Of a stretch of 64,000 bases of DNA, positions 32,676-51,952 are shown piece after piece (within the stretch, counting starts at the first letter, position 1; the number at the start of each line of letters is the position of its first letter). The DNA is taken from contig JALIZF010001885.1 of NCBI GenBank assembly GCA_029948255.1, positions 186,001 to 250,000 of the forward strand, in the 5' to 3' direction. The DNA is from Telmatactis stephensoni (Eukaryota; Cnidaria; Anthozoa; Actiniaria; Isophelliidae). The notes under the pieces are model-generated. The model was not told the DNA's origin. It saw only the letters and a list, made by a program, of their open reading frames with translations, and made no database searches. The position numbers and the translations under genes were made by a program.

Positions 32676-32682
32676 TTATATA

Positions 32683-33273
32683 ATGTGTTGCAATGCCCCT
32701 CAAGTAGATTACGAAAAGTATACAGTTTGCTCTAATTGCCTGCGACGTGAAATTAAGCCCCCAGAGCCGAGGCCTTTAAAGTGTTGTGGTAGGCGAATGA
32801 CCATAGAAGAAGACACTTCGGCCGTGTGTGAAATCTGTGGCCGTATAGTTTTTAATGCGGTGCCCTGTGCTACCTTTGGTCAATGTTATGCTAACGGCGG
32901 TCGTAAAAAGACGCCATATAAGAGAATTATTTACTTTAGAAAGTGGATGCGAATTATCTTAGGTTTAGAGCCAGTCTATGTTGATAAGAAAACCTTACGG
33001 CAGATAAAAGCTCATCTCAAAGAACCCACGCCACAGGGTTTGAAAAAGACTCTAAAAAAATTAAAGCTACAAAAATATAATAATGGCATTTCTTATATTT
33101 TGTCAGAAATAACCGGAGAAAAAATTCCCGACGTTTCTATGCAAATTATGCGTAGGGCCGAGAGTATGTTTATTCAGCTGCGGGGGGAAATCCCTTATTA
33201 CCCTGACGTCATCTACAAAATATTTTATGAAATCGACCCCAACCACCCCCTATTGAGATGGATTCCTGGTTGA
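32683..33273 (+). CDS. VLTF3-like late transcription factor
   Basis: 196 residues. The start is set at 32683 because the box TTATATAATG (32676-32685) overlaps that ATG, although the frame is open further upstream. The N-terminal third has paired cysteines (CSNC, KCCG, CEICG), a zinc-ribbon arrangement. The C-terminal part has the VLTF3 signature features: a YxRxxYFRKWM-like segment, KLQKYNNGISYIL, and the terminal YYPDVIYKIF followed by HPLLRWIP. Family knowledge: VLTF3-type proteins drive late transcription in nucleocytoplasmic large DNA viruses and are found in some Polinton-like viruses. The frame is undamaged. It is the leftmost recognisable gene of the element. Confidence 0.75.
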   Translation: MCCNAPQVDYEKYTVCSNCLRREIKPPEPRPLKCCGRRMTIEEDTSAVCEICGRIVFNAVPCATFGQCYANGGRKKTPYKRIIYFRKWMRIILGLEPVYVDKKTLRQIKAHLKEPTPQGLKKTLKKLKLQKYNNGISYILSEITGEKIPDVSMQIMRRAESMFIQLRGEIPYYPDVIYKIFYEIDPNHPLLRWIPG

Positions 33274-33316
33274 TGACTCATCGGGACTTCCCCTTTGAGA
33301 ATAAAAAAGAGCAAAA

Positions 33317-33390
33317 CTGGCTTTTTGGCCAGAAACCCCGTCGGGGAATAGATCGACTCGGAAGCTAATGCGTATTCCCCGACGGGGTTT
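33317..33390. terminator. Tandem hairpins after the VLTF3-like gene
   Basis: A small hairpin (CTGGC/GCCAG, 33317-33332) is followed by a perfect 18-bp inverted repeat: AAACCCCGTCGGGGAATA at 33333-33350 and its complement at 33373-33390, with a 22-nt loop, ending in TTTTTT. It lies between the ends of convergent genes. A transcription-end or RNA-processing role is an inference. Confidence 0.5.
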
Positions 33391-33457
33391 TTTGACTTTG
33401 TCTTTGCGCGTGAAATCCCTCATCGCGAGGTTAAATCACAGACAACACTACGGAAAC

Positions 33458-33577
33458 GGTCGGACTTACGGGGCTTATTTCATCCCGCGCCAGAGGTCCT
33501 GGGCACGACAGACATATAGGTCGGACTTACGGGGCTTATTTCATCCCGCGCCAGAGGTCCTGGGCACGACAGACACA
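33458..33577. repeat. Two tandem copies of a 61-bp unit
   Basis: GGTCGGACTTACGGGGCTTA starts at 33458 and 33519. The copies are almost identical over the full 61 bp, so the duplication is recent. Confidence 0.9.
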
Positions 33578-33647
33578 TACCCCACTAAGCATGAATAAAT
33601 GGGAGGGCTACATTTATTCACATTTAGTGAGGGGCTGTGAAATGCGC

Positions 33648-33728
33648 CCGACGAGGCTCGAACCCAGAATCTCTGATGCCCTCCAGCTCAGAGATCCAAG
33701 GCTCTAACCGTTCGGCCACATCGCACAA
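33648..33728 (-). tRNA. tRNA-like sequence (pseudo-tRNA or SINE head)
   Basis: On the minus strand TGGCCGAACGG fits an A box and GGTTCGAGCCT fits a B box at normal spacing. TGCG/CGCA can close an acceptor-like stem. The middle does not form a normal anticodon arm: ATCTCTGA and TCAGAGAT pair over an 11-nt loop. A functional tRNA is therefore unlikely. It may be a tRNA-derived insertion within the viral element. Confidence 0.4.
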
Positions 33729-33837
33729 CCAATATTTTTTGACTCCAAAATAGTATTTATGTTAGACGCGTGACGTCATTGTCTGGTTTTTGACACATGC
33801 AAATTAAATCCTGTCTCGCTTCGCTGGAAGTGAATAT

Positions 33838-34442
33838 TTAATGATTTAGTTTTTGTTTGATTTCTTGCATGGCTTCGCTGTAGATTTTCTTGCGTAGTTC
33901 GGGATCGTCTTTTTTAAAAACTTCGACGCTTTTTTGTCGTATTTCATTTTTTAATTGCTCGTATTTATTTGACTCGGCCATAATTAAAGCAAATTCATTC
34001 TCATCGATTCTGTTATTGTGGAGAGCTTTCGAAATGAGGTCTGAGATTGTATTTATTTTAGATTTGCATAACATTGTTGTTTTCTCATGTTTCGAAACCT
34101 TTTGGGTTAATTTTTTAGTCGCTACCGTGGCGACGGCTGAAATAATTCCACAGAGTCCCCCAATCGCGCTTAAAGGGATTCCTACTAGAATTCCTGGGCC
34201 CTGTTAAAGACTGTGGCAATCCCCGAACTTGTTAAAAGGGCTGATAAACTACCGGAAGATAAAGCAATGGCATGGGTCACAGAGCGTGTTTTATTGTATT
34301 TTTTACGCACGCCGTCGTAATGTTTGACCTCGGCGCCTAATTCAGAAAGGATCATATTGATTTTTTGAAGTCGAAAACTTTCTCCATCAGATATGACAGG
34401 GTATAATGGGGCAGAGGGTTCTTCTCGTATCACATCGGTCAT
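33838..34442 (-). pseudogene. Hydrophobic-core viral protein, one frameshift
   Basis: The N-terminal part runs 34442-34185. Starting near 34200 the coding signal continues in another frame through a Gly/Ala-rich hydrophobic segment (about 34200-34120) and a basic stretch, to the stop at 33838. The full product would be about 200 residues: an acidic N-terminus, a likely membrane or amphipathic middle and a charged C-terminus. The start box is CATTATATATAATG (34440-34453), shared with the plus-strand gene. Function is unknown. It may be a membrane-associated minor virion component. Confidence 0.6.
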
Positions 34443-34453
34443 TATATATAATG
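34440..34453. promoter_or_regulatory. Palindromic bidirectional start box
   Basis: CATTATATATAATG is a perfect 14-bp palindrome. Its two ends are the ATG codons of the divergent genes at 34442 (-) and 34451 (+). The same TATATA(A)TG motif precedes most genes of the element. Confidence 0.75.
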
Positions 34454-35937
34454 GTACAATACGAATGGCACAGATTTAGGACGGCCTACCCGCACGCCGA
34501 TTTTAAAAAGTTCTCTGCCGGGCCTCAGAGTATTGAATTCGAATACAATGGAATTGCTGTCGATGTGTTTAGAGAAGATATTACGCCAGATGGACCTTTT
34601 CCAACGGCAGTGCATCACTATGGCGACGCAAAATTAAATGCGGCGCTTTTAAAGGCCTTAGGTACCTAGAGATCCTAAAAACAAGACCGTTAAGATATCT
34701 CCATCGTCGTGGCCTAAGGATTTTACAGTCGCTAGAATAAATTACCCAGTGCCCGCTGTGGCTTGGCACACGATGCCTCCTAAGACTAATTTCTCTCATT
34801 TGACCTTAGAAGTGGCGCCGGGTAAAAAGATACCTTTAAAAGTTCGTAACGTGTTTAAAAAGAGTGAGACAGAATTTAAATCTGCAGCGGCGGCAAAAAA
34901 ATGGCTAAAAGGGCCAAGTATGACTTACTGGGCGCAACAGTTAAACTTTGCCGTATGGGCGGCGACGGCGGGCTGCGGTGTGGGTTTAGATATGCTACAG
35001 CGGTGTTCTTTTTTACAGTTTCATGTAATTTTTACTATTCGCCGCATTCTACATGAATTGGGAGCGCCTTTGCCGGGCGATCTTAGCTTTGATGCCTACG
35101 ACACACATTATAAAGAGGCGGCCTTTGAGAGGCTATGTAATGAATTTAAAATCCACAAGGACTTTAGGTTCTTAGCGCCCAACAATGGCGGCGTTGGCGA
35201 TCCTTATGGCTACGATTACGCAGGGCTTAACATAGAAGAAGGCGGCTGGCCTAACCCTGAGAATAGATTTAGAGATGAAGGGTAAGCCTAAATATGGCGG
35301 GCCTGAGATAGAAGTGTTAAAAGATTCTCGCACTCCTAGACAATACGATTGGTTTGTATTGCAAAAAGGTGAAGGTCTGGTAAATCTGGCCCGCCTAAAT
35401 AGAAGCATAGAGGCCTACGTTTATTGTGTGCTGGGGGCGCAGGTAGATACACGCTCGCCCATCATAGCCGCTGGTGGTGCTAGTCAAGAAACACAACAAC
35501 AGTTCTTAGTGCTCTTTGAATCGGCCGTCATAGAAAACGACATTGCCAAGAGCATACAAAGGTATCAGTTTGCCGTCCAAGAGGCTAAAGTGCGCTTAGA
35601 CTACGCCATAGCCCCAGGTTGTTGGCTAATGCCTAGCGATTTAGTGATTAATACTCACTCTGTCGTGGGCTATAACAATCTTTTACAAAAGGCTACTGAG
35701 GTGATGAAATTTGGCATCAATGACATCAACGGCGATTTGAAGCAGCGTAAAGTGCCACACTTTGATAAGCCGCCGAAGAAAAAGCCACCGCCTAAGAAAG
35801 AAAAACCCACCCTCGGCCCACCAGAGAAAAAGCCTATTAAGCCGCTGCCGACTATAAAAGAAGAATACGACCATGATCTTTTAAAGGGCGGCATTACGGC
35901 GGCGGCGGTGGGGCTGGGCTATTTTATGCTACGGTAA
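34451..35937 (+). pseudogene. Large viral protein with Pro/Lys-rich tail, two frameshifts
   Basis: Coding signal runs 34451-34669, about 34670-35285 and 35275-35937 in three frames, each break being a one-base change (near 34668 and 35287, the latter in a G run). The product would be about 495 residues. The N-terminal two thirds look globular. A tail of about 35 residues is Pro/Lys-rich (PPKKKPPPKKEKP), followed by an acidic linker and a C-terminal hydrophobic stretch (ITAAAVGLGYFML) that could be a membrane anchor. I do not recognise the fold. Its position near the capsid gene suggests a structural role. Confidence 0.6.
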
Positions 35938-37383
35938 TTATATCTTTAACTTCTTTAAAAGTACGGCGCCTATGGCGACGACAAGAATCCAAATATTGTT
36001 GCCGACAAACTTCAGCAATTCGCCGCCGGTCTTCAACACCAAAGATAAGACGCTGCCTAATAGACCTGGCACGGCGGCGGCCATTTTTTTACCTAGCGCG
36101 GTCAGGCCTTGACCTATTTTTTTAACACCGGCGCCGACACCTTTTAAAGAGGTTAATATGACTCCTATGACACTACTTATAGCCACGGCAAAGGCCGCAG
36201 GAATGCCATATTTCAAAAGGGCTCGTTTTATTTTTTCTTTGGTGGTGAGGCCTAATTCACGCTCTAATTTATTTTTTTCTTTTTTAAGCTCGGCGACTCT
36301 TTCTTGAAGGGAGGTTAGTTCTTCTTGGGCGGCTGTGCGTTCTTCTTCAGGGCGATTTAGGTCGTTGATGATTTGTTGTTTTTCGTTAATGTTATGTTCT
36401 AAATCTTCTATCGCCTGTGTCGTTTGCCTTAGCCGCTCTTCAAGGGTGCGGACTCTATGTTCTAACTCGGCCTTTTCTCTTTGCGAGGCCTCGAGTTCGG
36501 AAGTAAGGGTGGCGGCATCGGTTTTGGTTATCCCTAACTCTTGGGTGGTTTCGTCTAGCGCCGCGCGGGCACGGTCTCTTTCCCGCAGGGCTTTGTTGGC
36601 CTCGGTGACAATGGTATTTCTTTCTTCCAAAATAGAATTGTAGCGGTGTTCGGCATCTTCGAGGAAGTTTTCTGTCTCTAGGTTGTGGCGTTCTTCGTTG
36701 GCCGCCAAGGCTTTTTCGTATTCTTCCTGGACGCGGTCAAATCGGGATTGTAGATTAGACAGGGCCTGGGTTTTGACCGCAAGGGCTTGTTCGGCCTCGC
36801 CTAGTTGATCTTCTAGGTCGATGGCTCTCTTTTGTAATGCGATCTTTGCATTGTGCTCTTCCAATAGCTCTAAGAGGCCTCTCGATGCCATTTTAAATCC
36901 CTTGAGCGCCTTTACCGTTTCTCTAACCTCGCCTTCTTTAGTGAAAAGGGGCTGTGGCTTAGTCCATTTGCCTTGCCTCTGTTCGTTGGGAAACGAGATG
37001 TAAACTTGGCCCTTCTGCTCAGTTAGTCTTACATAATCGAAGTTAAAGTGTTCGTATAATTCTAAGAGGCGTTTTTCGGCCAGTTCGACCGGAGTTTGAA
37101 GAGTTTCTTTTAGTGTTTCTTCATCGCGAAATTTGTTAAATTCTTCCATTTGAAGGTACTCAGGGATTGGCTCGTCGGGATGCAAACGCTCGTAGTCATG
37201 TTCGAGGCCGCGGATATACTTGTATGCGTCATTGCCAAAACGACGAAGGGCATCTCTAAAGACGGCGAACCTGTTTCTTTTCCCTCTTTCTATCTGTAGA
37301 TTTAATTCTTCTTCGTCTTCGTTATTGTCGTCTTGATCCCTGTGTGTGAGGGGGTCAAAATCAGGATCTATTTCGCCTTCCAT
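35938..37383 (-). CDS. Coiled-coil viral membrane protein, 481 residues
   Basis: Undamaged frame. Residues 1-20 are acidic. About residues 150-390 form a long heptad-rich coiled coil (many E, L, K, R and Q, for example LEHRVRTLEERLRQTTQ). The C-terminal part has a hydrophobic helix (YGIPAAFAVAISSVIGVIL), an amphipathic Gly/Ala/Lys section and a final hydrophobic helix (WILVVAIGAVLL). It starts at 37383 within CATATATATATAATG, shared divergently with the major capsid gene. Likely a virion or membrane-remodelling protein, by inference. Confidence 0.7.
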   Translation of the reverse strand: MEGEIDPDFDPLTHRDQDDNNEDEEELNLQIERGKRNRFAVFRDALRRFGNDAYKYIRGLEHDYERLHPDEPIPEYLQMEEFNKFRDEETLKETLQTPVELAEKRLLELYEHFNFDYVRLTEQKGQVYISFPNEQRQGKWTKPQPLFTKEGEVRETVKALKGFKMASRGLLELLEEHNAKIALQKRAIDLEDQLGEAEQALAVKTQALSNLQSRFDRVQEEYEKALAANEERHNLETENFLEDAEHRYNSILEERNTIVTEANKALRERDRARAALDETTQELGITKTDAATLTSELEASQREKAELEHRVRTLEERLRQTTQAIEDLEHNINEKQQIINDLNRPEEERTAAQEELTSLQERVAELKKEKNKLERELGLTTKEKIKRALLKYGIPAAFAVAISSVIGVILTSLKGVGAGVKKIGQGLTALGKKMAAAVPGLLGSVLSLVLKTGGELLKFVGNNIWILVVAIGAVLLKKLKI

Positions 37384-37395
37384 ATATATATAATG
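37381..37395. promoter_or_regulatory. Bidirectional start box between coiled-coil and capsid genes
   Basis: CATATATATATAATG contains the minus-strand ATG (37383-37381) and the plus-strand ATG (37393-37395). It is the second divergent pair served by one AT box. Confidence 0.7.
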
Positions 37396-38645
37396 ATCAG
37401 CTCAAAGATAGATCCCAGTATTCTGCCCAAACAGACCGGCGGCTTAAAGGCCGAAAGGACTTTTCACCGCGTTACTTTTACGCCCTCTAGTGCAAACCCA
37501 GGGGAGACATTATACGTCAGCGTCCCCACGCTCTCGGAAAATCTTCTCTTAGTGCCTGGCACCCTGGCGCTGCGGTTTGATTTGGCCATACAACCAACAA
37601 CGGCCGACAAACGCCATTGCGTTAACAACATAGGCCGCAACATCGTCAATCGCATGAAAGTTAAATTTGCCGGAGAATGTCTTTTGGATCTCAACAGGTA
37701 TGACCTTTACCACACTTACAAAGATCTATTCATGTTGCCCAAAGAGAGAGATGTGCTGGTGGAGCAGGGCGTTGGCACTGATACCGTTGAGAAAGATGAG
37801 AAGTAGCTTCATCCAATAAGGGAAGTGATGCAGGAGCTACGGCGCTATCAACGGCCTATGGCACCAAATATGTCATCCCTTTGGATTTTGAAGTTCTGAA
37901 GACCCATGGTGTCTTTTACCCCAGAATCTTATCATCTGATATGCAGTTTGAAGTGACGCTGGCGGACACCACTAACTTACTGCAGGGCACTGACGCGGCT
38001 TTGTCTGGGGCGATTCACGACTACAGTATGACCAATCTACAGCTGCAGTATGAAACCATTCACAGCGATACCTTAGCCCGCAGTGCCGCCGGTGAATACT
38101 CTGCTGGCAAGGCTTTTCTCTATGACCACGTGCATCATCACAAGACCATCCCCATTCTAGACAAGACCCAAGATTTAATTACCGAAACGGTGAATATACC
38201 CCGCAGGTCTCTGTCTGGGCTGCTGCTGCTCTTCGTAAAGCCGTTTTCGGCCGGCCAGAGAGATTCAGAGAAGTTTGTCAATCCGAACATTACCGACGTC
38301 AAAGTCAATATCAACGGCGTTCCTAATAAGATTTACTCGCAGGGATTAAAGCCGGCCGACATTTACAAAGAAGTAGTAAGACGGTTTGGCGACCACATAA
38401 GCCCCGCGCAGTTCTTTCATGGCAATAAATATGCCCTGTGGGTGGATCTAAGAACCTCAGAGGACAATGATATTCACGGCCAGGGCTTAAAGCTGGTCAG
38501 CACGCAAGACGGCGTCACTTTGGAGATAAAACGCACAACAAATTCTGGCGCGGGCAATGATGACAAGATCAACTGCCACATCTTTGTCGTCGGCGATGCG
38601 CAAATGAACATAGAAGGTAATCAACTTCATTCCATTGCCTATTAA
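37393..38645 (+). pseudogene. Double jelly-roll major capsid protein (hexon), one frameshift
   Basis: The first jelly-roll part spans 37393-37806. A one-base deletion near 37800 moves the frame, and the rest continues to 38645. Total length is about 417 residues, usual for DJR capsid proteins of Polinton-like viruses. Supporting features are the LPKQTGGLKAERTFHRV N-terminus, a NRYDLYHTYKDLF helix, NIPRRSLSGLLLLF, and the FVNPNITDVKVNINGVPN strand pair. Family knowledge: trimers build the icosahedral shell. The start is fixed by the TATATAATG box, and the frame open further upstream is spurious. Confidence 0.8.
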
Positions 38646-38701
38646 GATTAAAAAAATATAAGACCCGATTTTAAGATTAAAATATCCGTTAGGTATAAAA
38701 A

Positions 38702-39494
38702 ATGTTACGCGTCTTTGAAAACCCAAAACTAAATCTAAAACTCAATACCCTCAAAAAGGGAGATGAATTGTATTTTAAAGCAAAAGACGTTGCTAAGGCC
38801 TTAGGCTACAGTTGTGCAAAAAATCCAGTAAGAGACCACGTATCTGAGGAATACAAAAAAACCCTGGGCGAAGTAAGGGGGCATCGAAATGGTGCCCCCT
38901 TGAATGAGCAACCAAACGCCGTCTATGTTTCTGAGCCCGGCCTTTATGAGCTAATTTTTAACAGTAAGATGCCGGCCGCCGTAGAATTCAGAAAGTGGGT
39001 CTTCGAAGAAGTATTACCGCAGATTCGTAAAACGGGCCATTATGATCTGAAGAAAGATATAAGGGCCATCACGTGTTTTAAGATCGAAAATGAGTTTGAC
39101 CTACATAAAAAAGTAATAGATTACATCCGTCGCTTTCATAATCTTCTCATCGTCGCCGGCCTCGGAGAAAACCAAGATACCCAGCAAAAGCGAATACAAA
39201 GTTGGCAAAAGGGCTATCAGAAGGGGCAGCCAGATCTTATAGTGCAAAATGCTCATAAAAATTATAACGGCTTCTGTATAGAATTAAAGACGCCTAAGGG
39301 CACTGGAGAAGTCTCTGAAGCCCAAAAAGAAGCATTACGAAGATATGAACAGCAGGGTTATCTTACTTTGGTCAGCCACTGACTATGATGAAATAGTTGA
39401 TGCCCTTAAAAGAATACTGCAGCGGCCTAAGGGTTCCTTGCCCGCGGTGTCCCACGGCGCTTTAAAAGCGAAGAAACCTTGGCGGTGCATATGA
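38702..39494 (+). pseudogene. BRO-N domain fused to VRR-NUC-like nuclease, late frameshift
   Basis: Residues 1-115 are a BRO-N domain: FKAKDVAKALGYSCAKNPVRDHV, and YVSEPGLYELIFNSKMPAA followed by FRKWVFEEVLPQIRKTG. After a linker, residues 150-228 match a PD-(D/E)xK nuclease of the VRR-NUC kind, with GQPDLIVQNAHK, FCIELKTPKGTGEVSEAQ and YEQQGY. Near 39370 the frame slips by one base, and the final helix continues in another frame to TGA at 39492. The start lies in TATAAAAAATG. BRO-N is a DNA-binding module common in large DNA viruses, and the nuclease half may act in replication or repair. Confidence 0.75.
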
Positions 39495-39538
39495 GAGTTA
39501 TACATCGCCTTTAAAGGTAAAAACATCTCTATGATATA

Positions 39539-39857
39539 ATGATCAGCGTCTCAGAATTTAACAATGCCATCAAAGAAGCCGAAACCATGACAAAAGTGGC
39601 GCGATTTAGAAGTCGGGCGCATTTATAAGATTGTGGACTATGATGTCTATGAGTTACATGCGGCCGAGACGATGAAGCTGACCCTTGAAGATGGCGATAA
39701 TAAGCTTTACACTATGTGGGCGCCGCAGCGGGTAAAAGAGACTTTAGAGGGCAAAGAATATACTCATATACGGAGTAATGGGCTTAAAAAAGGCCGCAAT
39801 AATAGCCATTGGAGCTTTAATGCGGTCAAAATAGAAAAGAAAGATATGTTCTCTTAG
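39539..39857 (+). pseudogene. Small viral protein, about 105 residues, one frameshift
   Basis: Starts in GATATAATG (39533-39541). After about 20 codons the frame shifts near 39605, and the rest (GRIYKIVDYDVYEL, NKLYTMWAPQRV, THIRSNGLKKG) continues to the stop at 39857. Alternating polar strands suggest a small beta fold, possibly nucleic-acid binding. This is a weak inference. Confidence 0.5.
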
Positions 39858-39864
39858 ATATATA

Positions 39865-40038
39865 ATGAGCGACGGCCAAGAGATTTACATTGACAGCGAA
39901 GAATGGACTTTAAGTTCCTCGGACGGCGACTACAGCTCCTTGTCATCTTATGACAGCGAAGACGAGGTATTTACTTCATCGGGGCCTTTTAGGCTCAGCG
40001 TTATAGAAAAAACCACCATTTACGAAAGGCGGCGCTGA
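39865..40038 (+). CDS. Small acidic Ser-rich viral protein, 57 residues
   Basis: Complete frame from the ATG in GATATATAATG (39857-39867) to TGA at 40036-40038. The composition is Asp/Glu/Ser-rich (YDSEDE, SSSDGDYSSLSSYD) with a basic RRR end. It is short, but its start box matches the other genes of the element, which supports it. Confidence 0.55.
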   Translation: MSDGQEIYIDSEEWTLSSSDGDYSSLSSYDSEDEVFTSSGPFRLSVIEKTTIYERRR

Positions 40039-40131
40039 AGTCGACAAAAAAAAACTATATAGTGCCGGTTGGGGCTTTTTTTTATTCTAAGGTGTATCGT
40101 TATTTGAGGTTAAAATATTTTCTATTATATA

Positions 40132-40671
40132 ATGCAAAGCTGTCCAAACTGCCCAAGAACTTTCTATAATATTGATCGTCTTTATTACCATGTCGAAAAT
40201 ATGGTGTGCCTTAAAAATAGGCCCACATGCGGCGATTGTAATAAGACTTTCACCGCCCTTGAGAGTCTAAACTATCATCTCCAAAAAAGAGTCTGTCACA
40301 AAGAAAAACCAAATAAGACATGCGGCGTCTGTCATTGGACCTTTTATTCGGTCAAAAATCTTAAAGATCACATAGAAAAAAACGTATGTCTTAGAGAACG
40401 GCCCAATACCACATGCGACACTTGTAATCATACGTTTTCTACGCCCCAACGGCTTAAATATCATATCGAAAAAAAGGTATGTCTTAAAGAAAACTTGACA
40501 TGCGGCGCTTGTAATAAGACCTTCGCTACGCCGCAAAGGCTTAAATATCATACCAAGGCAAAAATCTGTCTTAAAGAGCGGCCAAATACAACATGCGGCT
40601 CTTGTAATCATACTTTCTCATCCGCCTGGCGGCTTGAATATCATAAACAAAGAAAAGGATGCGGGCGCTGA
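40132..40671 (+). CDS. Six-finger C2HC zinc-finger protein
   Basis: 179 residues, almost entirely six zinc fingers of spacing C-x2-C-x12-H-x5-C (for example CGDCNKTFTALESLNYH then a final C). The fourth ligand is Cys, not His, in every finger. The hydrophobic core positions (F, L) are as in classical fingers. It begins in ATTATATAATG. Probable DNA- or RNA-binding regulator encoded by the virus. The frame is undamaged. Confidence 0.8.
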   Translation: MQSCPNCPRTFYNIDRLYYHVENMVCLKNRPTCGDCNKTFTALESLNYHLQKRVCHKEKPNKTCGVCHWTFYSVKNLKDHIEKNVCLRERPNTTCDTCNHTFSTPQRLKYHIEKKVCLKENLTCGACNKTFATPQRLKYHTKAKICLKERPNTTCGSCNHTFSSAWRLEYHKQRKGCGR

Positions 40672-40800
40672 AATCCATTTGAAAAGTAAAATATCCGCCC
40701 GACGCCGTTGACACGGGAAGACCTTATAAAAATCACATAGAGAGAGATGTAATTTTTTTTTTTCTATGGCGATGGGACGCCGCCATCATCTTAGAATATG

Positions 40801-40965
40801 AAAAAAGTTCTATTCCGCTTTAACAACGGTTTGTTTTTTTGTATACTTTTACGAAAAAAAAGTTCTATTCCGCTTTAACAACGGTTTGTTTTTTTGTATA
40901 CTTTTACGAAAAAAAGTTTATAATGGATTTAACAACTGTATCTTTTTTTGTAGACTTATTTATAT
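40801..40965 (+). repeat. 55-bp direct repeat, three copies, upstream array
   Basis: GTTCTATTCCGCTTTAACAA recurs at 40807 and 40862, with a diverged third copy from 40916. Each is followed by a T-run and GTATACTTTTACG or similar. The third copy runs straight into the TATATCTATATATGG start box of the next gene. The same unit occurs inverted at 41681-41951. Confidence 0.85.
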
Positions 40966-40971
40966 CTATAT

Positions 40972-41652
40972 ATGGAACGGTGTAAAAAGTGTCAGAGAAC
41001 ATTTACTTCTGCCGCGCGACTTAAACAACATATAAAAACCAATTCCTGTGGCATTAAATGTCACCGCTGCCAAAAGAGCTTTTGCCGGCCGCAGAGTTTA
41101 CAAAACCATTTAGAAAGAAAGGTGTGTTTAAAACCTAAAGTAATACAATGCGGCTTCTGTAAAAAGATATTCGCCTGTAAACAACGGCTCGAAAAGCATA
41201 TGGAAAAGTGTCTTAATCACTTCTGCGGCGATAAAGAATGGCACGAGAGTAGGTGTAACGAAGAATATAATCTTAATGACGTAGATTGTTATAATTGCGG
41301 CGACTTACTCTTCAGATGCAAATGCCGGGAAGATTATATACGCGCGCTTGTCTTGGAAAAAAAATCCATTGACCGGCGATTTACATCGGGTGCCTATTTT
41401 GACAAGATAGAAGGAACGCCCTGGGAAAATGTTAATTACTGGTCTTCTGAACATATAGGTGGCTGCGGCGCCGTTAGAAACTCTGAAGAACATATAATGG
41501 GCTGTCTCTTTCCTGTTAAAGACCGCCAGCCCAAAGAAGATATAATTATAGAAGAGGGTTATTATGGGTACAACAGCTGTTACTGCTGCGGTAAATCATT
41601 TTCTTCGAAACAGAGATTAGAATATCACTTAGATCACCTCGTATGTCAATAA
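40972..41652 (+). CDS. Zinc-finger protein with C2HC fingers, 226 residues
   Basis: The N-terminal region has three fingers (two with C-x2-C-x12-H-x5-C, the third with H-x3-C). A central Cys-rich part contains CYNCGDLLFRCKC, and a final C2HC finger (CYCCGKSF) closes the protein. It is related to the gene at 40132. It is flanked by 55-bp repeats in opposite orientations, three before and five after. The frame is undamaged. It may bind the repeats, though this is speculative. Confidence 0.75.
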   Translation: MERCKKCQRTFTSAARLKQHIKTNSCGIKCHRCQKSFCRPQSLQNHLERKVCLKPKVIQCGFCKKIFACKQRLEKHMEKCLNHFCGDKEWHESRCNEEYNLNDVDCYNCGDLLFRCKCREDYIRALVLEKKSIDRRFTSGAYFDKIEGTPWENVNYWSSEHIGGCGAVRNSEEHIMGCLFPVKDRQPKEDIIIEEGYYGYNSCYCCGKSFSSKQRLEYHLDHLVCQ

Positions 41653-41680
41653 AATGTTAAAAAAATACTACGGCGGGCTT

Positions 41681-41951
41681 AATAAGTATACAAAAATACA
41701 TACTGTTGTTAAAGCGAAATAGAACTTTTTTTTAGAATAAGTATACAAAAATACATACTGTTGTTAAAGCGCCGTAGAACTTTTTTTAGAATAAGTATAC
41801 AAAAATACATACTGTTGTTAAAGCGCCCTAGAAGTTTTTTTTAGAATAAGTATACAAAAATACATACTGTTGTTAAAGCGCCCTAGAAGTTTTTTTTAGA
41901 ATAAGTATACAAAAATACATACTGTTGTTAAAGCGCCGTAGAAGTTTTTTT
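41681..41951 (-). repeat. 55-bp repeat, five copies, downstream inverted array
   Basis: AATAAGTATACAAAAATACA starts at 41681, 41736, 41790, 41845 and 41900, a strict period of 54-55 bp. Read on the minus strand it is the upstream unit (AGTTCT…GCTTTAACAACAG…GTATAC). Copies are nearly identical. It lies between two convergent genes. Confidence 0.9.
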
Positions 41952-41959
41952 TTCGTAGT

Positions 41960-42140: not shown

Positions 42141-42144
42141 ATAT

Positions 42145-42741: not shown

Positions 42742-42748
42742 TATATTT

Positions 42749-43203
42749 TTATAGCGAAAGAACCGTCAGAGTGCTAATGGTCATGTGATTATAAGGCCTA
42801 TCTCTCTTGTCGGCAATTCCATTGACGCGAAGTTTGCCCGAGTCATCGGCCCGCACTTGAAGCTGGACTTTTTTCTTCACTTCGGCCACCATATGAAACG
42901 TGACGACGCTTAAATTCTCTGTAGAGTTGATCGGCGGTTCAAATGAAAAATGGGCCGGCTCTCGTTTATTCGTCTTAGCGCGCATAGGTAGAAAGGGTTT
43001 CCCGTCGTGATCCACAAATTGAAATCCCGCATTCACATGGCTCTCGGTACTAATACAAATACTACAAAGAATCAATTTTCGGCCGGGATAATTCACATCC
43101 ACGCTCAATCCTGCCACATTTTGCCAAGACCCCAGATTATAATCTGCTTCGGTATCTAAAGCCGCATAAACACAATCTGCTCCTGGGCCTGTAAGGGATT
43201 CAT
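42749..43203 (-). pseudogene. Jelly-roll-like virion protein 1, one frameshift
   Basis: Paralog of the next gene (shared LILCSICIST, NAGFQFVD, PAHFSFEPP and VTFHMVAE positions). The likely start is in AGTATATATG (ATG at 43203-43201), directly after the stop of the upstream gene. A one-base break near 43165 separates the first residues from the main frame (43117-42749). It lacks the basic tail of its paralog. Confidence 0.55.
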
Positions 43204-43208
43204 ATATA

Positions 43209-43425
43209 CTACATCGGAAGCCTCATAAAGTCGACGACAGCTTCTTTACCCCACATAGCCAGAGTCACTAAGGCCGAGAACCTTTCGGCCGTTTTATTGG
43301 CCGCCAACTCTTCTTTGAGCCGCTTTACTTCTTCTTGCAGATCCAACACCTGCTCTTCTAGACTTCTTTTTTCTCGTATAAATTCAGCAACCTTAGGATA
43401 CAGCTTCAGTTGGTGACTGTTCCAT
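43209..43425 (-). pseudogene. Coiled-coil small protein, one frameshift
   Basis: Starts in TTTATATGG (ATG at 43425-43423) and soon slips one base. The main frame encodes a heptad-rich helix (SLEEQVLDLQEEVKRLKEEL) and a terminal hydrophobic part, to TAG at 43211-43209. The open signal also extends upstream of this ATG, overlapping the decayed ATPase gene, so the true start is uncertain. Confidence 0.4.
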
Positions 43426-43439
43426 ATAAATGAATGCAG

Positions 43440-44051
43440 AACATATTCCTTTGTAATGCTCTTATTCGTAGGAACCCACAGGTGCGGTAAAGACAGCAGT
43501 TTGTCGTAAGAAACAACTTTTAGGTCCTTTTAGTATACAAGTTTGACTACATTGTACTACTTTGCCCCACTTATGTAGAAAAAATAACAAACTTGGAGCC
43601 GGTAATAGGGAACAAAAGAACGAGGAATTCTTTGTAGATATAGCGAGACCCCTAATGAACTTAGTCAATCCACTTGAAGTTCCTGGCAGAAAGCATTTCC
43701 ACATGACACACAGACCCTACTTATTCTTGATGACATTGCTTGTGGCGACGACGTTAAGAAACGCACGTCGGAGTTAATTAAGCTAGCCTTTAGCGGCAGA
43801 CACGACAACATCTCTGTTTGGTTACTCTCGCAGCAGTTGAACTAGCGTCTCTAAGCCCTTTCAGGGAAAATATTGGTGCTCTGGTGGTATTTTACACTCC
43901 TAGTAAGAGCGACTTGGAGACCATTCTTTCAGACTATGGTGGAGAAATCACCAAAGAAGAACTACATAAATACATGCGGCATTTGAAGACCCATCAGCAT
44001 TCCAAAATGATCTTCTCTTTGAGATATCCATATAGCGTCGATATAGTTTAA
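43440..44051 (+). pseudogene. A32-like genome-packaging ATPase, strongly decayed
   Basis: Pieces in three frames match the FtsK-HerA packaging ATPases of Polintons and large DNA viruses: a damaged Walker A (PTGAVKT in place of PTGxGKT, about 43470-43490), FDYIVLLCPTYVE (43546-43585), Walker B LLILDDIA (about 43716-43740), GRHDNISVWLLSQQ (about 43795-43835) and the C-terminal ENIGALVVFYTPSKSDLE region to the stop at 44049-44051. At least three frame changes and a Walker A substitution make it non-functional. Family role: pumps the genome into the capsid. Confidence 0.75.
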
Positions 44052-44071
44052 AAACGTATGGTTTTAAATAT

Positions 44072-44524
44072 ATGGAGATTGAGCAGATCCTTGATGAAGT
44101 TCCCACACAGCTGGATGAAAATGACTACAAAGAACAACTTAATGTATTGGTAAGTTCCGGTAAGTGCAAAGAAATGATAGGTAAAGAGCTTACCCACGAG
44201 CAAGTCAGTAAGTTGTCCGAGGCGGAAGTCAAGAAGTTCCACAAAAGATACGAGTCTGCACTTGCAAGTAAGACTACAGACGCCGTTGCTGACTCAGCCA
44301 TTAAGCTAGCTACTAAGGTTTTGGGACTTGCGCTGCCCATAGACGACGTAGAGCAACTTCAGAAGGACATAAGAGAAGACTATGTCATCGCCCAAGAACT
44401 TAAGATAACTTGTGGGTGGTTGTCCTTGAAGTGTGGTAAGTTAATGGCAGTGGCGAGTGCTGTACTTCACGTTGCCCAACACATTGACCTTGAAAGAACT
44501 TACCACTTCTTGGAGCGACTTTAA
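44072..44524 (+). CDS. Hypothetical viral protein, 150 residues
   Basis: Undamaged frame starting in TTTAAATATATGG. Mostly helical in appearance, Lys/Glu-rich in the first 80 residues, then a more hydrophobic half (SAIKLATKVLGLALPI, KLMAVASAVLHVAQHI). I do not recognise the family. It lies between the ATPase and the small membrane proteins, so it is possibly structural. Confidence 0.55.
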   Translation: MEIEQILDEVPTQLDENDYKEQLNVLVSSGKCKEMIGKELTHEQVSKLSEAEVKKFHKRYESALASKTTDAVADSAIKLATKVLGLALPIDDVEQLQKDIREDYVIAQELKITCGWLSLKCGKLMAVASAVLHVAQHIDLERTYHFLERL

Positions 44525-44590
44525 GAAGTCAAAGATAAGTCAGGAACAAGTTCTTGAAGAAGTTGAAGACAAGTCATCTGTAAGTACTTA

Positions 44591-44712
44591 ATCAAGTCGT
44601 CGTAGGTTACTTATCAAGTCGTCGTAGGTTACTTATCAAGTCCTCGCAGGTACTTATCAAGTCGTTTGTAGGTCACTTATCAAGTCCTCGCAGGTTACTT
44701 ATCAAGTCGTCA
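44591..44712. repeat. 22-bp tandem repeat, six copies
   Basis: ATCAAGTC starts at 44591, 44613, 44635, 44657, 44679 and 44701, an exact 22-bp period. The array lies directly upstream of the start box at 44728. Confidence 0.9.
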
Positions 44713-44727
44713 AGTCCTTTAATATAA

Positions 44728-45048
44728 ATGAGTGACACTGAGCAACCACCGGTTGAGCACCAAGAAGCTAAGATTACTAAGCCCAAGAGTCCAGGCAGAG
44801 TAGCAGCCGGTAAGAAGCTGGCAGAAATGAATAGAAAAAACAAGGCCAAAAAAGACAAAAAAGAAGAAGACACTAGTAGCGGCTGGGACATTAACCCTGG
44901 ATATGTTATAGGCTTGGTTGGATTGGCTATTGGAGCCGGCAGTCTTTATTTGCAGTGGAAAGGACAAAAAAAGCCAGCACCGGTGACACCTCCGACACCT
45001 GCAAGCTCACCAACGCCTCAGCGTAAAAAAATACCCGACATGGAATAA
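44728..45048 (+). CDS. Small viral membrane protein, 106 residues
   Basis: Undamaged. A basic N-terminal half (KKLAEMNRKNKAKKDKKEE), one hydrophobic segment (YVIGLVGLAIGAGSLYLQW) and a Pro/Thr-rich end. Starts in TTTAATATAAATG. Probably a single-pass virion membrane protein. Confidence 0.6.
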   Translation: MSDTEQPPVEHQEAKITKPKSPGRVAAGKKLAEMNRKNKAKKDKKEEDTSSGWDINPGYVIGLVGLAIGAGSLYLQWKGQKKPAPVTPPTPASSPTPQRKKIPDME

Positions 45049-45069
45049 ATCTTACTTTTGTTATATATA

Positions 45070-45289
45070 ATGTCGTCTCAAGTGATGAAAACCGTTGAAG
45101 AAGCTCTTATTCTAACTTCTATATATTGTTGCAGGCGTAGGTTGGGTTGGTAAAAAAGTATTAAAAGAAACCTTTACTGGAGACCCAAGCACTAATGTTA
45201 TGAATTATGTTAAAATGACCGCTGCCGTTGCAGGAAGTATTGCCTTAAAAGATTATCTACAGAAAGAAAAGATTATACCTACTGTATAA
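45070..45289 (+). pseudogene. Small viral membrane protein, about 73 residues, one frameshift
   Basis: ATG at 45070-45072 in TTATATATAATG. The frame slips by one base near 45122, and the hydrophobic continuation (YIVAGVGWVGKKVL, MTAAVAGSIALKDYL) ends at TAA 45287-45289. Its stop overlaps the next ATG as TAATG. Confidence 0.5.
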
Positions 45290-45718
45290 TGGTAAGTCTA
45301 GTTGCAGGCGGCGTTATTGCAGGCTTTAGCTTTTACAGGCGCTAATTATGGAGGTCAATATTTAGATCGTTTAGTCCGCGGAGATCATAACAAAGATCTT
45401 ATTGCAGAGAGAAAACGTCATGACTTAGCTTTGGAAAGATATCAGAGGGATGTGGAGGCATGGAATAAAAAAAGACAAGCCTATCAGGACTGGTTGGATA
45501 AGAACTACCGGGATAAGATGCAGGCTGATAAGAATTTTCAAAATACCGACTATGCATTTAAACTCTATGCTGAAGCCCATCCAGAACACCCTATTAGATT
45601 ATCAAAGCTTCGATGGAAAAATTACTACACCCCTTCTAAGAGACAAAAAAATAATGAACTTTTATTTGTTGGTGTTTCAGGTCTGGCCATCGGAGGCACT
45701 GTAGCTTATTTATTATAA
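45289..45718 (+). pseudogene. Viral protein with N- and C-terminal hydrophobic helices, one frameshift
   Basis: ATG at 45289-45291, in the TATAATG box that also holds the previous stop. After SLVAGGVIAG the frame slips near 45325. The main part is charged and Tyr-rich (residues 20-120), followed by a C-terminal membrane segment (LLFVGVSGLAIGGTVAYLL). The stop at 45716-45718 overlaps the next ATG. Confidence 0.55.
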
Positions 45719-46357
45719 TGATTGTCTTTTTAGAAAGCTGATAAAAATAATTTCACTGTGAATTTAAATCCTCCCATTGAAGCCCATAAAGTTCGTCTTG
45801 TAAGTTGTAGTCTTTACAACAGCTGGTATAATTTAATTGGGGGTAAAGCTATTATACTAGTACCAAACGCCCAAGGCGCAAACATGCCAACCGTTCAAGT
45901 TATCCCCAATGGTCATTATACACCAATCACCCTGGCTAAGGAATTAGCAAAACATGGTTATACCTTCACAACAGGATTGCCCCATGAGATGAAAATTAAA
46001 CACAGTCTGTCTAATAATCGTTCAGTAACCCCTAATGAGATTGGCGCTTTAGCATCTTTATTAGGAATCTCAAAGAATATAACCAACACAGCCATTCCTG
46101 TGAAATGGAAAGTCGCCAGCAGTTACGAAGTCTACTGCGATTTGGTCCAAAGCTACAACGAAGGGAAGCCCTCTCATTTGATGTCGAAGTTTCCACCCAA
46201 GGGTAATCCATTTGACCTAGTGGAATACACTCCCATTTGTTTAAACTACGATTTGTCTTGCGACTTGGTAAGCAGCGTTAACATCACCATTAAAGTTGAC
46301 GGAAAAGTTGTAAATTTTAACAATAGAAAGATAAACCTTGTCTTGGAATTCATATAA
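45718..46357 (+). pseudogene. Penton-like minor capsid protein, early frameshift
   Basis: ATG at 45718-45720 in TTATAATG. The first codons are out of frame with the rest (break near 45735). The main frame encodes about 200 beta-rich residues: NLNPPIEAHKVRLVSCSLYNSWYNL near the start, NGHYTPITLAKELAKHGYTF in the middle and INLVLEFI at the end. Family knowledge: proteins with this opening and helix-turn layout accompany Polinton capsid genes and are taken as single jelly-roll penton proteins. The stop (46355-46357) overlaps the decayed start of the integrase. Confidence 0.65.
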
Positions 46358-47325
46358 TACCTCGCGTCGAAGACAAACTTAAGAGAATTTATTATGGACC
46401 TCAAGGCTATTGGAGAGGAGCCTCGGCTATTAAGAAACTTGCTGTGGCGGCTAGAGTCTCTGAAGACACAGCGAAGAACTGGTTAAAAAAACAGACCCTC
46501 TGGCAGGTTTATCTTCCCGTTCCTAAATACATTCCCAGACCCAGTTTCACTGTGAATGCGCCCAACGAAGTTCATCAGGCGGATTTGCTTTTCTTACCAC
46601 ACGACAAGGTGAGAAGAAGAACCTACAGATATGCTTTAACCGTCGTGCATATCGCAAGCAGATACAAGGACGCTTAGCCCATAACCAGTAAGGATTCAGG
46701 AGAAGTCGCGGAAGCGCTAAGTAAGATTTATAAGCGCGTTTTAAAATGGCCAAAGCTGCTGCAGGTGGATGCGGGAACAGAGTTCATGGGCGTCGTCACT
46801 AAGACCCTGAAAGACCATGATACTAAGATCAGGAGAGCTGAAGCAGAGTACCACAGGGGTCAAAGCCTCGTTGAAAGATTTAATCGCACCCTAGCGGAAC
46901 GCTTGTTTGGATATCAGTATTGGAAAGAACTAGCAGATCCATCCAAAAGCAACAGGGAGTGGGTGCAGAGACTTCCAGAGGTCATTAAGGCTTTAAATGA
47001 TGAGGAAACAAGGGCAACGGGAATGAAACCTAAGGATGCCATAAAAAGAAACACGTCGAACACAAATCCTACGTTAGGAGTTCAAGAGCAGTAGGAATGA
47101 AAGAAAAAAAATTAGGTAACGTCACGGTTCGATATCTCTATCAGCCTGGGGAATTGGAAGGAGGATCCAAAAGAGCTACGGATTCCTAATTGGTCTTTGA
47201 AAACTTACCAGATCTCAAAGTCCGTCACAAAAGAAGGACAGCCCGTGTTGTATTACTTAACACATGGTCCAAGCCGTGGATTTGTTAAAGAAGAGCTGCT
47301 CATAGTCCCCAAGGATTCAGAGTAG
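46357..47325 (+). pseudogene. Retrovirus-like (RVE) integrase of Polinton type
   Basis: The expected start codon in CATATAATA reads ATA instead of ATG (46357-46359). The catalytic core has the D,D,E pattern: HQADLLFL, LLQVDAGTEFMG, and SLVERFNRTLAERLFG. An in-frame TAG at 46675-46677 lies between the first and second Asp. After a stop at 47092-47094, the C-terminal SH3-like part typical of Polinton integrases (VRYLYQPGELEGG, VLYYLTHGPSRGFVKEEL) continues with at least two frame changes to TAG 47323-47325. It would insert the genome into the host chromosome, and this copy is inactive. Confidence 0.85.
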
Positions 47326-50300
47326 TGCTGCACCACGCGCCTGATTACACTCTAAGCACGTCAAACGTATATTACCTACAGAGTGACCTTTCTTATTATT
47401 TAAACGGTCCACAGAAAACTGCTGATCGTCGTTAGGTTTAAAATCCCAGAGTAGCGGTATGTTACACTTAGCACACCTTGCGTTGGGTTTATAAACATCA
47501 TTGACCGTTAAGTCAAATACCTTATTTTTTTCCTCATCAATTTTCTGATACCGCTGCAGTTTCTTAAGTATATTAGCCTTAGCTACTTCAGGCGGTGTAT
47601 TATCGTACCGTAATTGCGGACCCCACGCTCTTTTTAGTTGTTTGTAGTATTCAACTCTGCTAACTGCAGTGTAAATAAGATTACTCCAACAAAGACGCTG
47701 GTCTATAATCCATAAGTTTTCTTTAACTGTTAATCCCTGACCACTGTGTACTGTCATACAATAACCTAACCGCCAGTCCGGCGAAGAAATAACCTTTTCT
47801 ACTACAGATAGCGGCACCCAAGCCCTATCGTGTGTTACAGCATTTTCTAAAACCAAGTCAGTGTGGGGTACCGTAACTGTTTTTCTTTGAAAACGCGTGT
47901 CCCGCGGTTTATAAACCACAGGTACTTCGTGGTTAGGGTGTTTTGTGCGATGTAAATTAAGTAAATCCTTTTGTATTCTGGATTGTGTAGCACGTCGACT
48001 ACTAAACACCAACTCTTTTGGATGCCATCGGGATAAGAATTTTTGATATTTTAAGGCTTTCAGTTCTTTACGCATTACCCTACACTGCTCTACGTCGCTT
48101 AACCCGCGTAAGGACTTTTTAAAATCCCTAACTGAATCTTTACTGCGGTAGTCAGCGTTCACTTCTTCTACATAAGCAGCGTTTTTAACCATTCATGGGG
48201 CATTTCTCCTCCAATAGGCGGCGGCTGACAGGGATCGCCAACAAAGATAACTTGCGTTTCCCCATCTAAGAAGGCTACAAATTCTTTTAGTATCCCTAGG
48301 GGTACTGTACAGACTTCGTCCCATAGTATTACAGGCGGAATGTCGTGTATAGCTTCGGGAACCCACTTTTGATTGTTGTATCTAAAGAAGCTGTGGTACG
48401 TTTGTGCGTCGTAACCCATTTTACAGAGTTCACGTTCTAAACGGTGAGTGGGTGTAAGAACTTTTGGTTTACCAAATAATTGTAGTACGCGGGTTGTTTT
48501 ACCACTGCCACCGGTACCGTAAATATAAGAAAACTTGTGATAGCTAATTGGGTCTTTTACGGTTGGGTAAACTTGCACAGTAGGTTCCAACTCTCCTTGG
48601 ATGTGATTATCGCTGTACTTGACTCTTTCACGCCAAGCTTTAATTTTCTCATTTTTTACCCTCCACTGACCGCTCTCTGCGTAATCTTCTGGGGCATAGT
48701 GGTCTTTTATCATTTCAAGCAGCTCTGGTTTAATGTACAAACTATCTGTAGCTACACGTGGTACATCTTCTTTGTCAAATCTTAACAGCATAGCTAATAA
48801 AGATATGTGTGCGTAAGCTAACATACTAGCACGAAGATGGTAATACTGTGCTTTGTAGTCGTGATAGTAGCAGAGTATATGACCCAGCGGAGAATCTTCT
48901 ACGTTTACAAGAACACCTTCTTTATGAGCGCGTTTAATAAGAAAGTTGAGTTCTTCAGAGTCTGTCACTAAACGACGCTGCATATGTTTTTCACCCATTT
49001 TAGCACCTTGTGTAAATTTACCTATAACAATTCTTGCTGTGGGGTTATCGCTAGGCAACCATTGTGTTTGCACAGAATGACAGAGTATAGCTTCGTGGGC
49101 TGTGTAGGTTAATAAGTTACGCTCCTCAAAGAATTTTAACAAAGGCACCGGAATCCAAGGGCTGTTAGATAAATGTTTACCATACCAAGCGTAGATTATA
49201 GGATGTAAGTTAGGTTTAAATTTCCACGTGGTTAATTTTACAAATCCTGTGGCAGGTGCATCGTAATAACCCGGTAAACTTACACGGAAGAACTGACTAT
49301 CCGGATGCCCATAACGGTTATAATAGGGGATACAATCACCAAGCCCTTTAAAACTAGCTGGATAACAATGCTTCATGTCTAAAGAAATGTATTCATCTTT
49401 GTTGTACTCCATATTCCAAAGACCGCCGTGTCCGTGTTCAACACAAGCAGCAGCAATATCTTCTGTAAACTCTTTTGGTGTCGGTTTCCAACCATTACGC
49501 TTTTTAGCAGCTAAGAAGTCTAAACTACGACTACTAAAGACTTCATCTTCAAAATCTTCTCCAAATTCCTCACAAGCTGCTTTAATTTTGTTATGTTCTT
49601 CTTTTGGACGGTAAAGCGTACCGTTCTGTGTTATAAATTGGTTACCTTCAGGGTCTAAAAACCAAATAGAATTTTCATGTACAAAGTCACTGGGTTCTAA
49701 CATAACACCATTTAAAAACTCTTGTGAAACGTAAAGAGAAGAGGTTTCATAAACTTTAACTTCTTTTTTCTTTGGAAATTTAACCTCACGCCAAGCATGT
49801 CCGTTGTGCTGGTAAATAACAATAGGTCTTCCATTTTTACTGTTTTTATGAGTACTAGGGTAAATAATACCGTCGGTAATATCCTTAACTGTAATAGCTC
49901 GTTTAATTAATAATTCTAACCTTTTAATATTTTCTATGGCACCACCAGATCTTTTCACTGAAAGTTCCCAATGGTCAATAACTTCTTTTCTTTGCTTAGT
50001 AAGTTTTCCACCTCTGGCTGTATCGCCAAAGAATTCTCTAACTAACTTTGCAACACAATTACCAGGATGTCTCATGGGTTGTAAATTATTGGCATTAGGA
50101 GTTCTAATTTTATACGCAGAGTAAATAACAACCGTTACGGGATAAGCAGCGTCGTAGTATAAACTATCAATACCTACTAATGCACCGGATTTGGTATTTT
50201 TATTTAAAGTAAATATATCCTTTTTTCTATTGTTTTTTATTAGGATTACGTCCTTTTTCAACCACCCAATTTCCATTAAAATCTTCTTTAATAAAGGTTA

Positions 50301-50523
50301 CCTCCAAACGATAATCACCACTCTGAATGTAACCTATAATAGTTTTAGCTCTTTCCATGGTAATTGTATAATCTTCATCTCCTTCGATGAATGAAATAAA
50401 GTTAAAGTCAGCATTAGAAGAGTTTAAAGTTTGTTTTGTCAATCTTCTAACTTGGTCATTTTGAATCTGCTCAGCTAAATTCCATTCATCTTGCTCTAAA
50501 AGCAATCTGTTAATGATGTCCAT
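47317..50523 (-). pseudogene. PolB palm - SF1 helicase - HNH nuclease protein, two frameshifts
   Basis: Three adjoining frames (50523-50227, 50276-48168, 48192-47317) overlap slightly and would make one protein of about 1,065 residues. The first 98 residues carry the start box (AATATATATG). The middle frame has a family-B-like polymerase palm: motif A DMKHCYPAS (about 49380-49355) and motif C ATDSLY (about 48753-48736). A normal KxxxNSxYG motif B is not apparent. SF1 helicase follows: Walker A GTGGSGKTT (about 48520), WDEVC, GDPCQPPP, then VHSGQGLT and YTAVSRVE in the third frame. The end (47470-47330) is an HNH-type treble clef with CAKC, FSVDRLNNKKGHSVGNIRL and CLEC. One-base breaks lie near 50235 and 48180. 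Confidence 0.75.
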
Positions 50524-51952
50524 ATATATTAACCAAATATTATAACCTCAATACGGTGGAGCATCGGGAATCAAGCCTTTTCCGGCGGGTTAAAAAACGG
50601 GTCAAAAATCCCATACATTCCTTTGTTAAAAAAACACTGCTTGTGGCTTGCTGCGGGGGGCTCACCCTATCTGCTGCTATACGCAGATATTGCTCAGTTA
50701 TCAAGTGATGGGCTAGTGAGATCCGGATATCAACATCTAGGCAATTGCATTTCTAGCATGTGAATCAAATAGTTTTTACCATCTGAGATACAGTATATGG
50801 CCACAGTACTACAACCAATTGTTATTATGAATGAGATATAATTTTGTGTGATTAAAGACTGCATTGTATTCACCAATGATGTACAGTAATCAAAAGTTTC
50901 TAGTGTACAACAGTCATGAATATACCACTGTAGCTTGGACTGTAGTGTATTTTATCTAAAGGTAGTATTGAATTTGGAAATTACTTCAGGTTCTTCTGTT
51001 TATAACATTAAAAATGTTTGTTGGGACAGTCTAGATAAACTACCATACAGTTCATTACCAATGTTCATTAGTTGAACTAAGTTATTGATGATGAAATACC
51101 ATTATTTCTGTGGGCAAATATTAGTGATTACACACTTGGTACCTACATTCAACCCAAACAACAACACTTTGTCTTGACTACAAGGTGCTTGGATAGTCTT
51201 AAAGGGATCTATAGGACCAGGATTTGTTTCTATATCACTTTTTAGACAAATTAGCTACAGTCAGATACCAGGAATATTTTAGACAGGACATAGCGGCTAT
51301 ACAACAAGATTTTTATTTTTAGGATGTAGAGGTTGGTTATCGATGTCAGACATCATATCGTTGATAAGGGAGGTCAGATCAGATTTATGTCATTTCAAAA
51401 TCGAAGTATCTTCCTAGATAAACAGAAAGATTCACCCAATCTTGACCACAGGGCACCAGTTATTGTGAGGGTCGAAATGTCACTCGCTCACTCGCCCAGT
51501 CAGCCGTTCGTGCACATCCAGATTAATAATTAACTTTTCTAATTTTGCTATCGACAATACTGCATGCTATAAACAAAATTTTTTGGAGCATTCGGTTGGA
51601 CAGATCATATTTGCCATTTGCGAAATGCACATGATCCTTTCTTACTCTCCAATACAGCACTGCGATATTTATACCTGAAAAGAAGGGTTGCTTTTTTTCG
51701 TGGATGCACCCAAAGGCTTGTCACGAATTTTGCGCATGCGTATATTCAAATGAACTAGAAGCACACATCCAGCTCATCACTGAAACGGCTAAAAACTTAC
51801 TTCGAAATGTCATCTCTATAATGGCGGGCCTTCTATCTGGCTGAACGCTTGAAGCACCCGGTAATGCATTGCGCGTGTACAGTATTGCGCAAGAATGGCC
51901 ATTTCGCGAGACGAAGACAGGAAAAAAAACAAAGCTAATTTAAGACTGGGCC
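50524..51952. other. Right flank of the viral element, no supportable gene
   Basis: The first 150 bases (to about 50670) are more GC-rich and may be the right terminal region, but no inverted match to 31.2-32.7 kb was found. Further right is ordinary AT-rich host sequence with a fragment (GTCACTCGCTCACTCGCCCAG near 51478) resembling the ACTCGTGG element. Confidence 0.45.

What the first reader, a model, noticed from the sequence alone, without database searches (positions are those of the whole stretch)
32676..50530. A near-complete endogenous DNA virus of the Polinton/adintovirus type
Capsid, penton-like, packaging ATPase, integrase, late transcription factor and replication genes lie together over 18 kb. 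The replication gene, the BRO-N/nuclease protein, the C2HC fingers and the shared promoter are not the standard Polinton set, so this may be a separate, poorly described lineage. No protease was recognised.
Basis: partly seen in the sequence, partly recalled or inferred. Interest (0 to 1): 0.9.

Follow-up and report, generated by a model that had tools for sequence, protein, structure and literature searches.

The report
Polymerase-helicase virus multiplied in cnidarian genome
An 18,000-base stretch of what is probably a cnidarian (coral-like) genome is a broken copy of a DNA virus whose capsid gene occurs at about 118 places in that genome, and it is predicted to copy its DNA with a fused polymerase-helicase protein instead of the usual polinton polymerase, which likely makes it a little-described animal branch of the polinton-like viruses.

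The parts
32518..50678 (.). whole element (broken provirus, 18.2 kb)
   Evidence: left break shared by other copies; right end CTGCTGCT
32518..32608 (+). left terminal repeat (91 bp in intact-ended copies)
50671..50678 (-). right end; only the terminal AGCAGCAG matches the left repeat, a type seen at 4 places
32683..33273 (+). VLTF3-like late transcription factor, intact
   Evidence: Pfam PF04947 4.9e-10
33838..34442 (-). hydrophobic protein in two overlapping frames, unknown
   Evidence: no Pfam match over cut-off
34773..35937 (+). unknown protein(s) in two overlapping frames, hydrophobic C-terminus
   Evidence: no Pfam match
35938..37383 (-). 481-aa coiled-coil protein with hydrophobic C-terminus, intact
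37393..38645 (+). major capsid protein, frame broken near 37800
   Evidence: intact frames in other copies; model of P0001
38702..39382 (+). BRO-N/VRR-NUC protein, intact
   Evidence: PF02498 1.4e-27, PF08774 3e-5
40132..40671 (+). zinc-finger protein 1 (Cys-Cys-His-Cys type)
40972..41652 (+). zinc-finger protein 2, flanked by inverted arrays of a 55-bp repeat
42145..43529 (-). putative fibre-like gene (coiled coil, then two similar domains), broken into three frames
   Evidence: read by eye; no Pfam match
43440..44060 (+). A32-type packaging ATPase, broken over several frames (limits approximate)
44072..45718 (+). three small proteins of unknown function (44072-44524, 44728-45048, 45302-45718)
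45734..46357 (+). penton-like candidate (conserved family; fold not tested)
46327..47094 (+). retrovirus-type integrase with in-frame stop
   Evidence: rve in the relative of copy C372
47317..50523 (-). replicase: OTU-like / palm motifs / SF1 helicase / HNH; three frames in this copy

Best explanation
Window 32518-50678 holds a broken provirus that most likely belongs to the Tlr1-type polinton-like viruses, likely inserted by its own retrovirus-like integrase and predicted to have copied its DNA with a fused polymerase-helicase protein. Shown: the gene set is one linked element present at many loci; better-preserved copies end in 91-bp inverted repeats starting AGCAGCAG; two of them have 5-6 bp target duplications, and uninterrupted paralogous sites show both empty targets. 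Inferred: the integrase makes a staggered cut and joins the AGCAGCAG ends; the large protein starts DNA from a protein primer and extends it (palm), unwinds (SF1 helicase) and may cleave itself (OTU-like Cys/His); VLTF3 drives late genes from a TATATA box abutting the start codon; the A32 ATPase packs linear DNA into a double jelly-roll capsid. This copy is dead and mosaic: its left part is about 99% identical to copies whose replicase is only about 70% identical to its own, and its right end is of another type.
Against: The palm is unproven: no Pfam polymerase hit in 35 members; comparison with five canonical PolB frames of this genome gave only hhalign probability 2-4% and E 0.01-0.02, though in the motif C register; the replicase model is middling (pLDDT 71.7, pTM 0.41) and fold matches covered only the helicase. 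The rve match is below Pfam's cut-off. No direct comparison with Tlr1 itself was possible. The window copy has no clean target duplication, and C656, with both terminal repeats, has none either.
Confidence: 0.82

Rival explanations
1. A standard polinton/adintovirus whose PolB has merely diverged.
For: RVE-type integrase, A32 ATPase, double jelly-roll capsid, terminal repeats and 5-6 bp duplications are shared with polintons; OTU-like residues also occur in adintovirus PolB (PMC11071296, passages).
Against: The polymerase part lacks the first motif-C Asp and is fused to a helicase; no DNA polymerase family matches; canonical DNA_pol_B_2 genes exist elsewhere in the same genome (88 matches); no protease was recognised.
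Confidence: 0.08
2. A fragment of a giant-virus (Nucleocytoviricota) insertion.
For: VLTF3, A32, BRO-N and a capsid model nearest to PBCV-1 among solved structures.
Against: It is an 18-kb unit with fixed ends, inverted repeats and target duplications in sister copies, repeated at many loci with the same gene order; the scanned genes of the element show no D5 helicase or giant-virus DNA polymerase. Giant-virus polymerases were not sought genome-wide.
Confidence: 0.03
3. A purely intracellular transposon of viral descent that no longer makes virions.
For: High copy number, recent insertions and many defective copies.
Against: Capsid frames without inner stops of 435-548 aa at many loci; a capsid 97% identical to an intact copy in a separate public record, which may be the same species (P0001). 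No selection test was done.
Confidence: 0.3
4. Unrelated insertions lying side by side.
For: Mosaic identity along the element.
Against: Linkage in 71 of 79 and 56 of 63 loci and common ends.
Confidence: 0.01

Closest known systems
Tlr1 element and other polinton-like viruses with a Tlr1-like helicase (pPolB-S1H)
   Same: replicase order OTU-like / palm motifs / SF1 helicase / endonuclease with the first motif-C Asp missing; Tlr1 also has an RVE integrase (PMC11071308, passages) and the packaging ATPase (PMC4642659, passages)
   Different: probably an animal host; HNH tail (Tlr1 itself is said to have GIY-YIG, PMC12721341); VLTF3, BRO-N/VRR-NUC and zinc-finger genes; sequence distance to Tlr1 itself not measured
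Polintons/Mavericks and adintoviruses
   Same: RVE-type integrase, A32 ATPase, double jelly-roll capsid, terminal repeats, short target duplications
   Different: no standard pPolB in the element, no recognised protease; canonical PolB genes are elsewhere in the same genome
OmPLV of the dinoflagellate Oxyrrhis marina
   Same: A32 ATPase, BRO-N/VRR-NUC fusion, helicase-polymerase fusion, multi-copy provirus (PMC12721341, passages)
   Different: helicase in front of a complete pPolB, tyrosine recombinase, no target duplications
Transpovirons
   Same: encode Tlr1-like helicases (PMC11071308, passages)
   Different: plasmid-like parasites of giant viruses; this element has capsid and integrase genes

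Membership tests
Tlr1-type polinton-like virus | palm motifs fused in front of an SF1 helicase, first motif-C Asp missing, conserved OTU-like Cys/His | tested here: met
   motif counts in 35 members, helicase fold; that the palm region folds as a polymerase is inconclusive
Tlr1-type polinton-like virus | RVE-type integrase | tested here: met
   rve 4.7e-6, below Pfam's cut-off, in the truncated frame of a sister copy; terminal repeats with 5-6 bp duplications
Tlr1-type polinton-like virus | double jelly-roll capsid and A32 ATPase | tested here: met
Tlr1-type polinton-like virus | groups with Tlr1/PLV helicases in a tree | not tested
   reference sequences not at hand
Polinton/Maverick | complete protein-primed PolB | tested here: not met
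   no DNA polymerase family in 35 replicase relatives; none in the window ORFs scanned
Polinton/Maverick | Ulp1/adenain-type protease | tested here: inconclusive
   no match in Pfam scans, but several ORFs are unknown or broken
[quoted passage not shown] integrase with chromodomain (PMC11071296) | tested here: inconclusive
   standard PolB not found; OTU-like residues present; hexon and chromodomain not compared with references
Nucleocytoviricota | large genome with the core genes DNA polymerase, D5 helicase, A32, VLTF3 and capsid | tested here: not met
   18-kb bounded unit; A32, VLTF3 and capsid only in the Pfam scans and capsid model

The most novel reading that the evidence does not exclude
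A family-level lineage of integrating viruses of animals (and perhaps of mycorrhizal fungi) that combines a giant-virus-like capsid, VLTF3 and BRO-N/VRR-NUC with a Tlr1-type polymerase-helicase-nuclease and a retrovirus-type integrase, still moving in its cnidarian host and trading modules between co-resident strains.
Probability: 0.5. Interest if true: 0.75.

Novelty: new variant of a known kind. Interest (0 to 1): 0.6.

Why it matters
Polintons and adintoviruses are the textbook DNA viruses integrated in animal genomes; in the passages read, the Tlr1 plan is described from a ciliate, algal and metagenomic viruses and transpovirons. A multi-copy, recently mobile family of that plan in an animal would extend its host range, may explain why cnidarian capsid genes fall outside the main polinton cluster, and may explain a lone giant-virus core gene reported in a sea anemone. 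Its mosaic copies make module exchange, and the question whether such proviruses form virions, testable in a living animal.

Tried and rejected
A scan for Walker A motifs found one only and suggested that no packaging ATPase exists; the genome-wide family search corrected this: present but broken here. The first idea of a 13-bp terminal repeat came from this copy's odd right end; other copies show 91 bp. Scans of viral contigs with the capsid, its alignment and the replicase alignment gave pattern matches but no confirmed relative. Genome contigs gave one 3-kb contig binned as an archaeon, probably misbinned. PDB sequence searches with the capsid and penton-like profiles found no capsid protein. 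Fold comparison of the replicase was filled by helicases, so its N-terminal part is barely tested. Profile comparison with canonical polymerases was weak. An empty allele of the window's own insertion was not seen: its left flank matched only itself among the candidates scored. Of the five copies whose right-end region was fetched, three showed the 91-bp repeat (C372, C511, C656), one another right end (C635), and none was found for C223. One search covered one strand only and missed four of the five empty sites; one search searched both strands.

Full report
What is there. The window is bases 186001-250000 of contig C64 of an unnamed 483.5-Mb genome in 1,782 contigs. GFP-family exons match at 30 places; GFP-like proteins are known chiefly from cnidarians, also from some copepods and lancelets (recalled), so a cnidarian, probably a coral or relative, is the best guess. 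The element spans 32518-50678. Of 39 other genomic matches to window 32000-33200, 38 start at query base 509-519, 28 of them exactly at 519, i.e. window 32518 (only 40 of 575 candidates were scored).

One element, not a heap of insertions. A search with the capsid N-terminus gave 135 matches, which merge to 118 loci on 104 contigs. The A32 family gave 79 matches and the replicase 64 matches at 63 loci (63 of 184 candidates scored, so a lower bound). 71 of 79 ATPase loci have a capsid gene 3-9.5 kb upstream on the same strand, 56 of 63 replicase loci have one 7-17.5 kb away on the opposite strand, and 87 of 118 capsid loci have a linked ATPase or replicase. The 118 include likely segmental or haplotype duplicates: six contigs (C40, C397, C593, C1299, C404, C1325) carry pairs of capsid loci 19.5-19.9 kb apart.

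Ends and mobility. Right-end regions of five further copies were fetched. Three end in 91-bp inverted repeats: 91 of 91 identical in C511, 88 of 91 in C372 and in C656. C511 is flanked by a 6-bp duplication (CACATC) and C372 by a 5-bp one (ACCTT); C656 has no matching flanks, C635 has a different right end, and none was found for C223. C372's left flank belongs to a host repeat with 39 other full-length matches at 98-99% (40 of 2,005 candidates scored); three of these were fetched and all three run uninterrupted through the insertion point (38-40 of 40 bases equal to C372's right flank after the 5-bp duplication), and two of three paralogues of the C511 flank do the same at that site. The window copy has the left repeat, but its right end is of a type found at four places, itself included, and its flanks (ATACAA/ATACGC) are no clean duplication.

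Mosaic. Against copy C372 the window is 99.0% identical at the left end, 94.0% over the capsid region, 88.4% over the ATPase region, 68.7-75.4% over the small gene before it and the penton-like gene, 87.6% over the integrase region and 73.2% in the one matched piece of the replicase start. Its replicase is 95% identical to that of C94 but 69-70% to most others listed. Recombination between co-resident strains explains this best (inference).

State of this copy. Capsid, ATPase, integrase and replicase frames are broken, and an ORF of about 0.4 kb between the penton-like gene and the integrase of C372 is missing. VLTF3, BRO-N/VRR-NUC, the coiled-coil protein and both zinc-finger proteins have open frames. 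The copy is dead.

Setting in the literature. Bellas et al. 2023 state that cnidarian capsid genes were the only metazoan ones outside the main Maverick-Polinton cluster (PMC10120064, passages). [quoted passage not shown] A 2017 survey reports a lone VLTF3 in the sea anemone Exaiptasia (PMC5294986, passages); elements like this one could be the source (inference). Compact units with VLTF3, capsid genes and a PolB close to adintoviruses were reported in Amoebidium (PMC11244446, passages), so VLTF3 by itself is not new in such elements. A Stylophora coral adintovirus with pPolB is also known (PMC11071308). Searches combining polinton with coral/adintovirus, Cnidaria/Tlr1, arbuscular mycorrhiza, Maverick/Acropora, BRO-N/VRR-NUC and VLTF3 listed no title or abstract start that describes a Tlr1-type element in an animal; I read passages only, and subscription journals are not held. 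The 2016 paper on the fusion was not available.

Mechanism, shown and inferred. Shown: bounded insertion with duplication, a linked gene set, near-identical copies. Inferred: integrase-made insertion, protein-primed replication by the fused enzyme, late transcription by VLTF3 from a TATATA box abutting the start codon (9 of 15 ORFs against 47 of 551 ATGs in the element; the motif was chosen by eye), packaging by A32. Whether virions form is unknown.

Noticed in passing
window 40801-40957 and 41681-41952: Arrays of the same 55-bp repeat flank the second zinc-finger gene in opposite orientation; possible origin or binding sites.
   Followed up: partly
contigs C40, C397, C593, C1299, C404, C1325 of the host genome: Pairs of capsid loci 19.5-19.9 kb apart recur on six contigs, probably one tandem pair copied by segmental duplication or present as haplotypes.
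   Followed up: no
host genome, PF03175 matches such as C234:626635-628584: Canonical polinton-type PolB genes (88 matches) coexist in the same genome, in frames of up to about 1,480 aa.
   Followed up: partly
window 58082-63411 (-): Two long frames that look like the pol (1328 aa) and gag (467 aa) of a Gypsy-type retroelement lie in the right flank (read by eye).
   Followed up: no
window 52894-53370 and 55998-56582 (-): Two similar ORFs, a duplicated unit in the right flank.
   Followed up: no
window 50741-51240: Interspersed repeat just right of the element, among 43 matches mostly at 86-100% identity.
   Followed up: no
window 39534-39850 (+): Broken small frame with a motif (LEVGRIYKIVDY...LTLEDG) that resembles, from memory, small proteins of invertebrate viral elements.
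   Followed up: no
L084: A 3.2-kb contig binned as a Diapherotrites archaeon encodes a broken relative of the replicase (30% identity); probably misbinned eukaryotic or viral DNA.
   Followed up: partly
window 3573-3903 and 9391-9764: Minisatellites with 81-bp and 40-bp units in the left flank.
   Followed up: no
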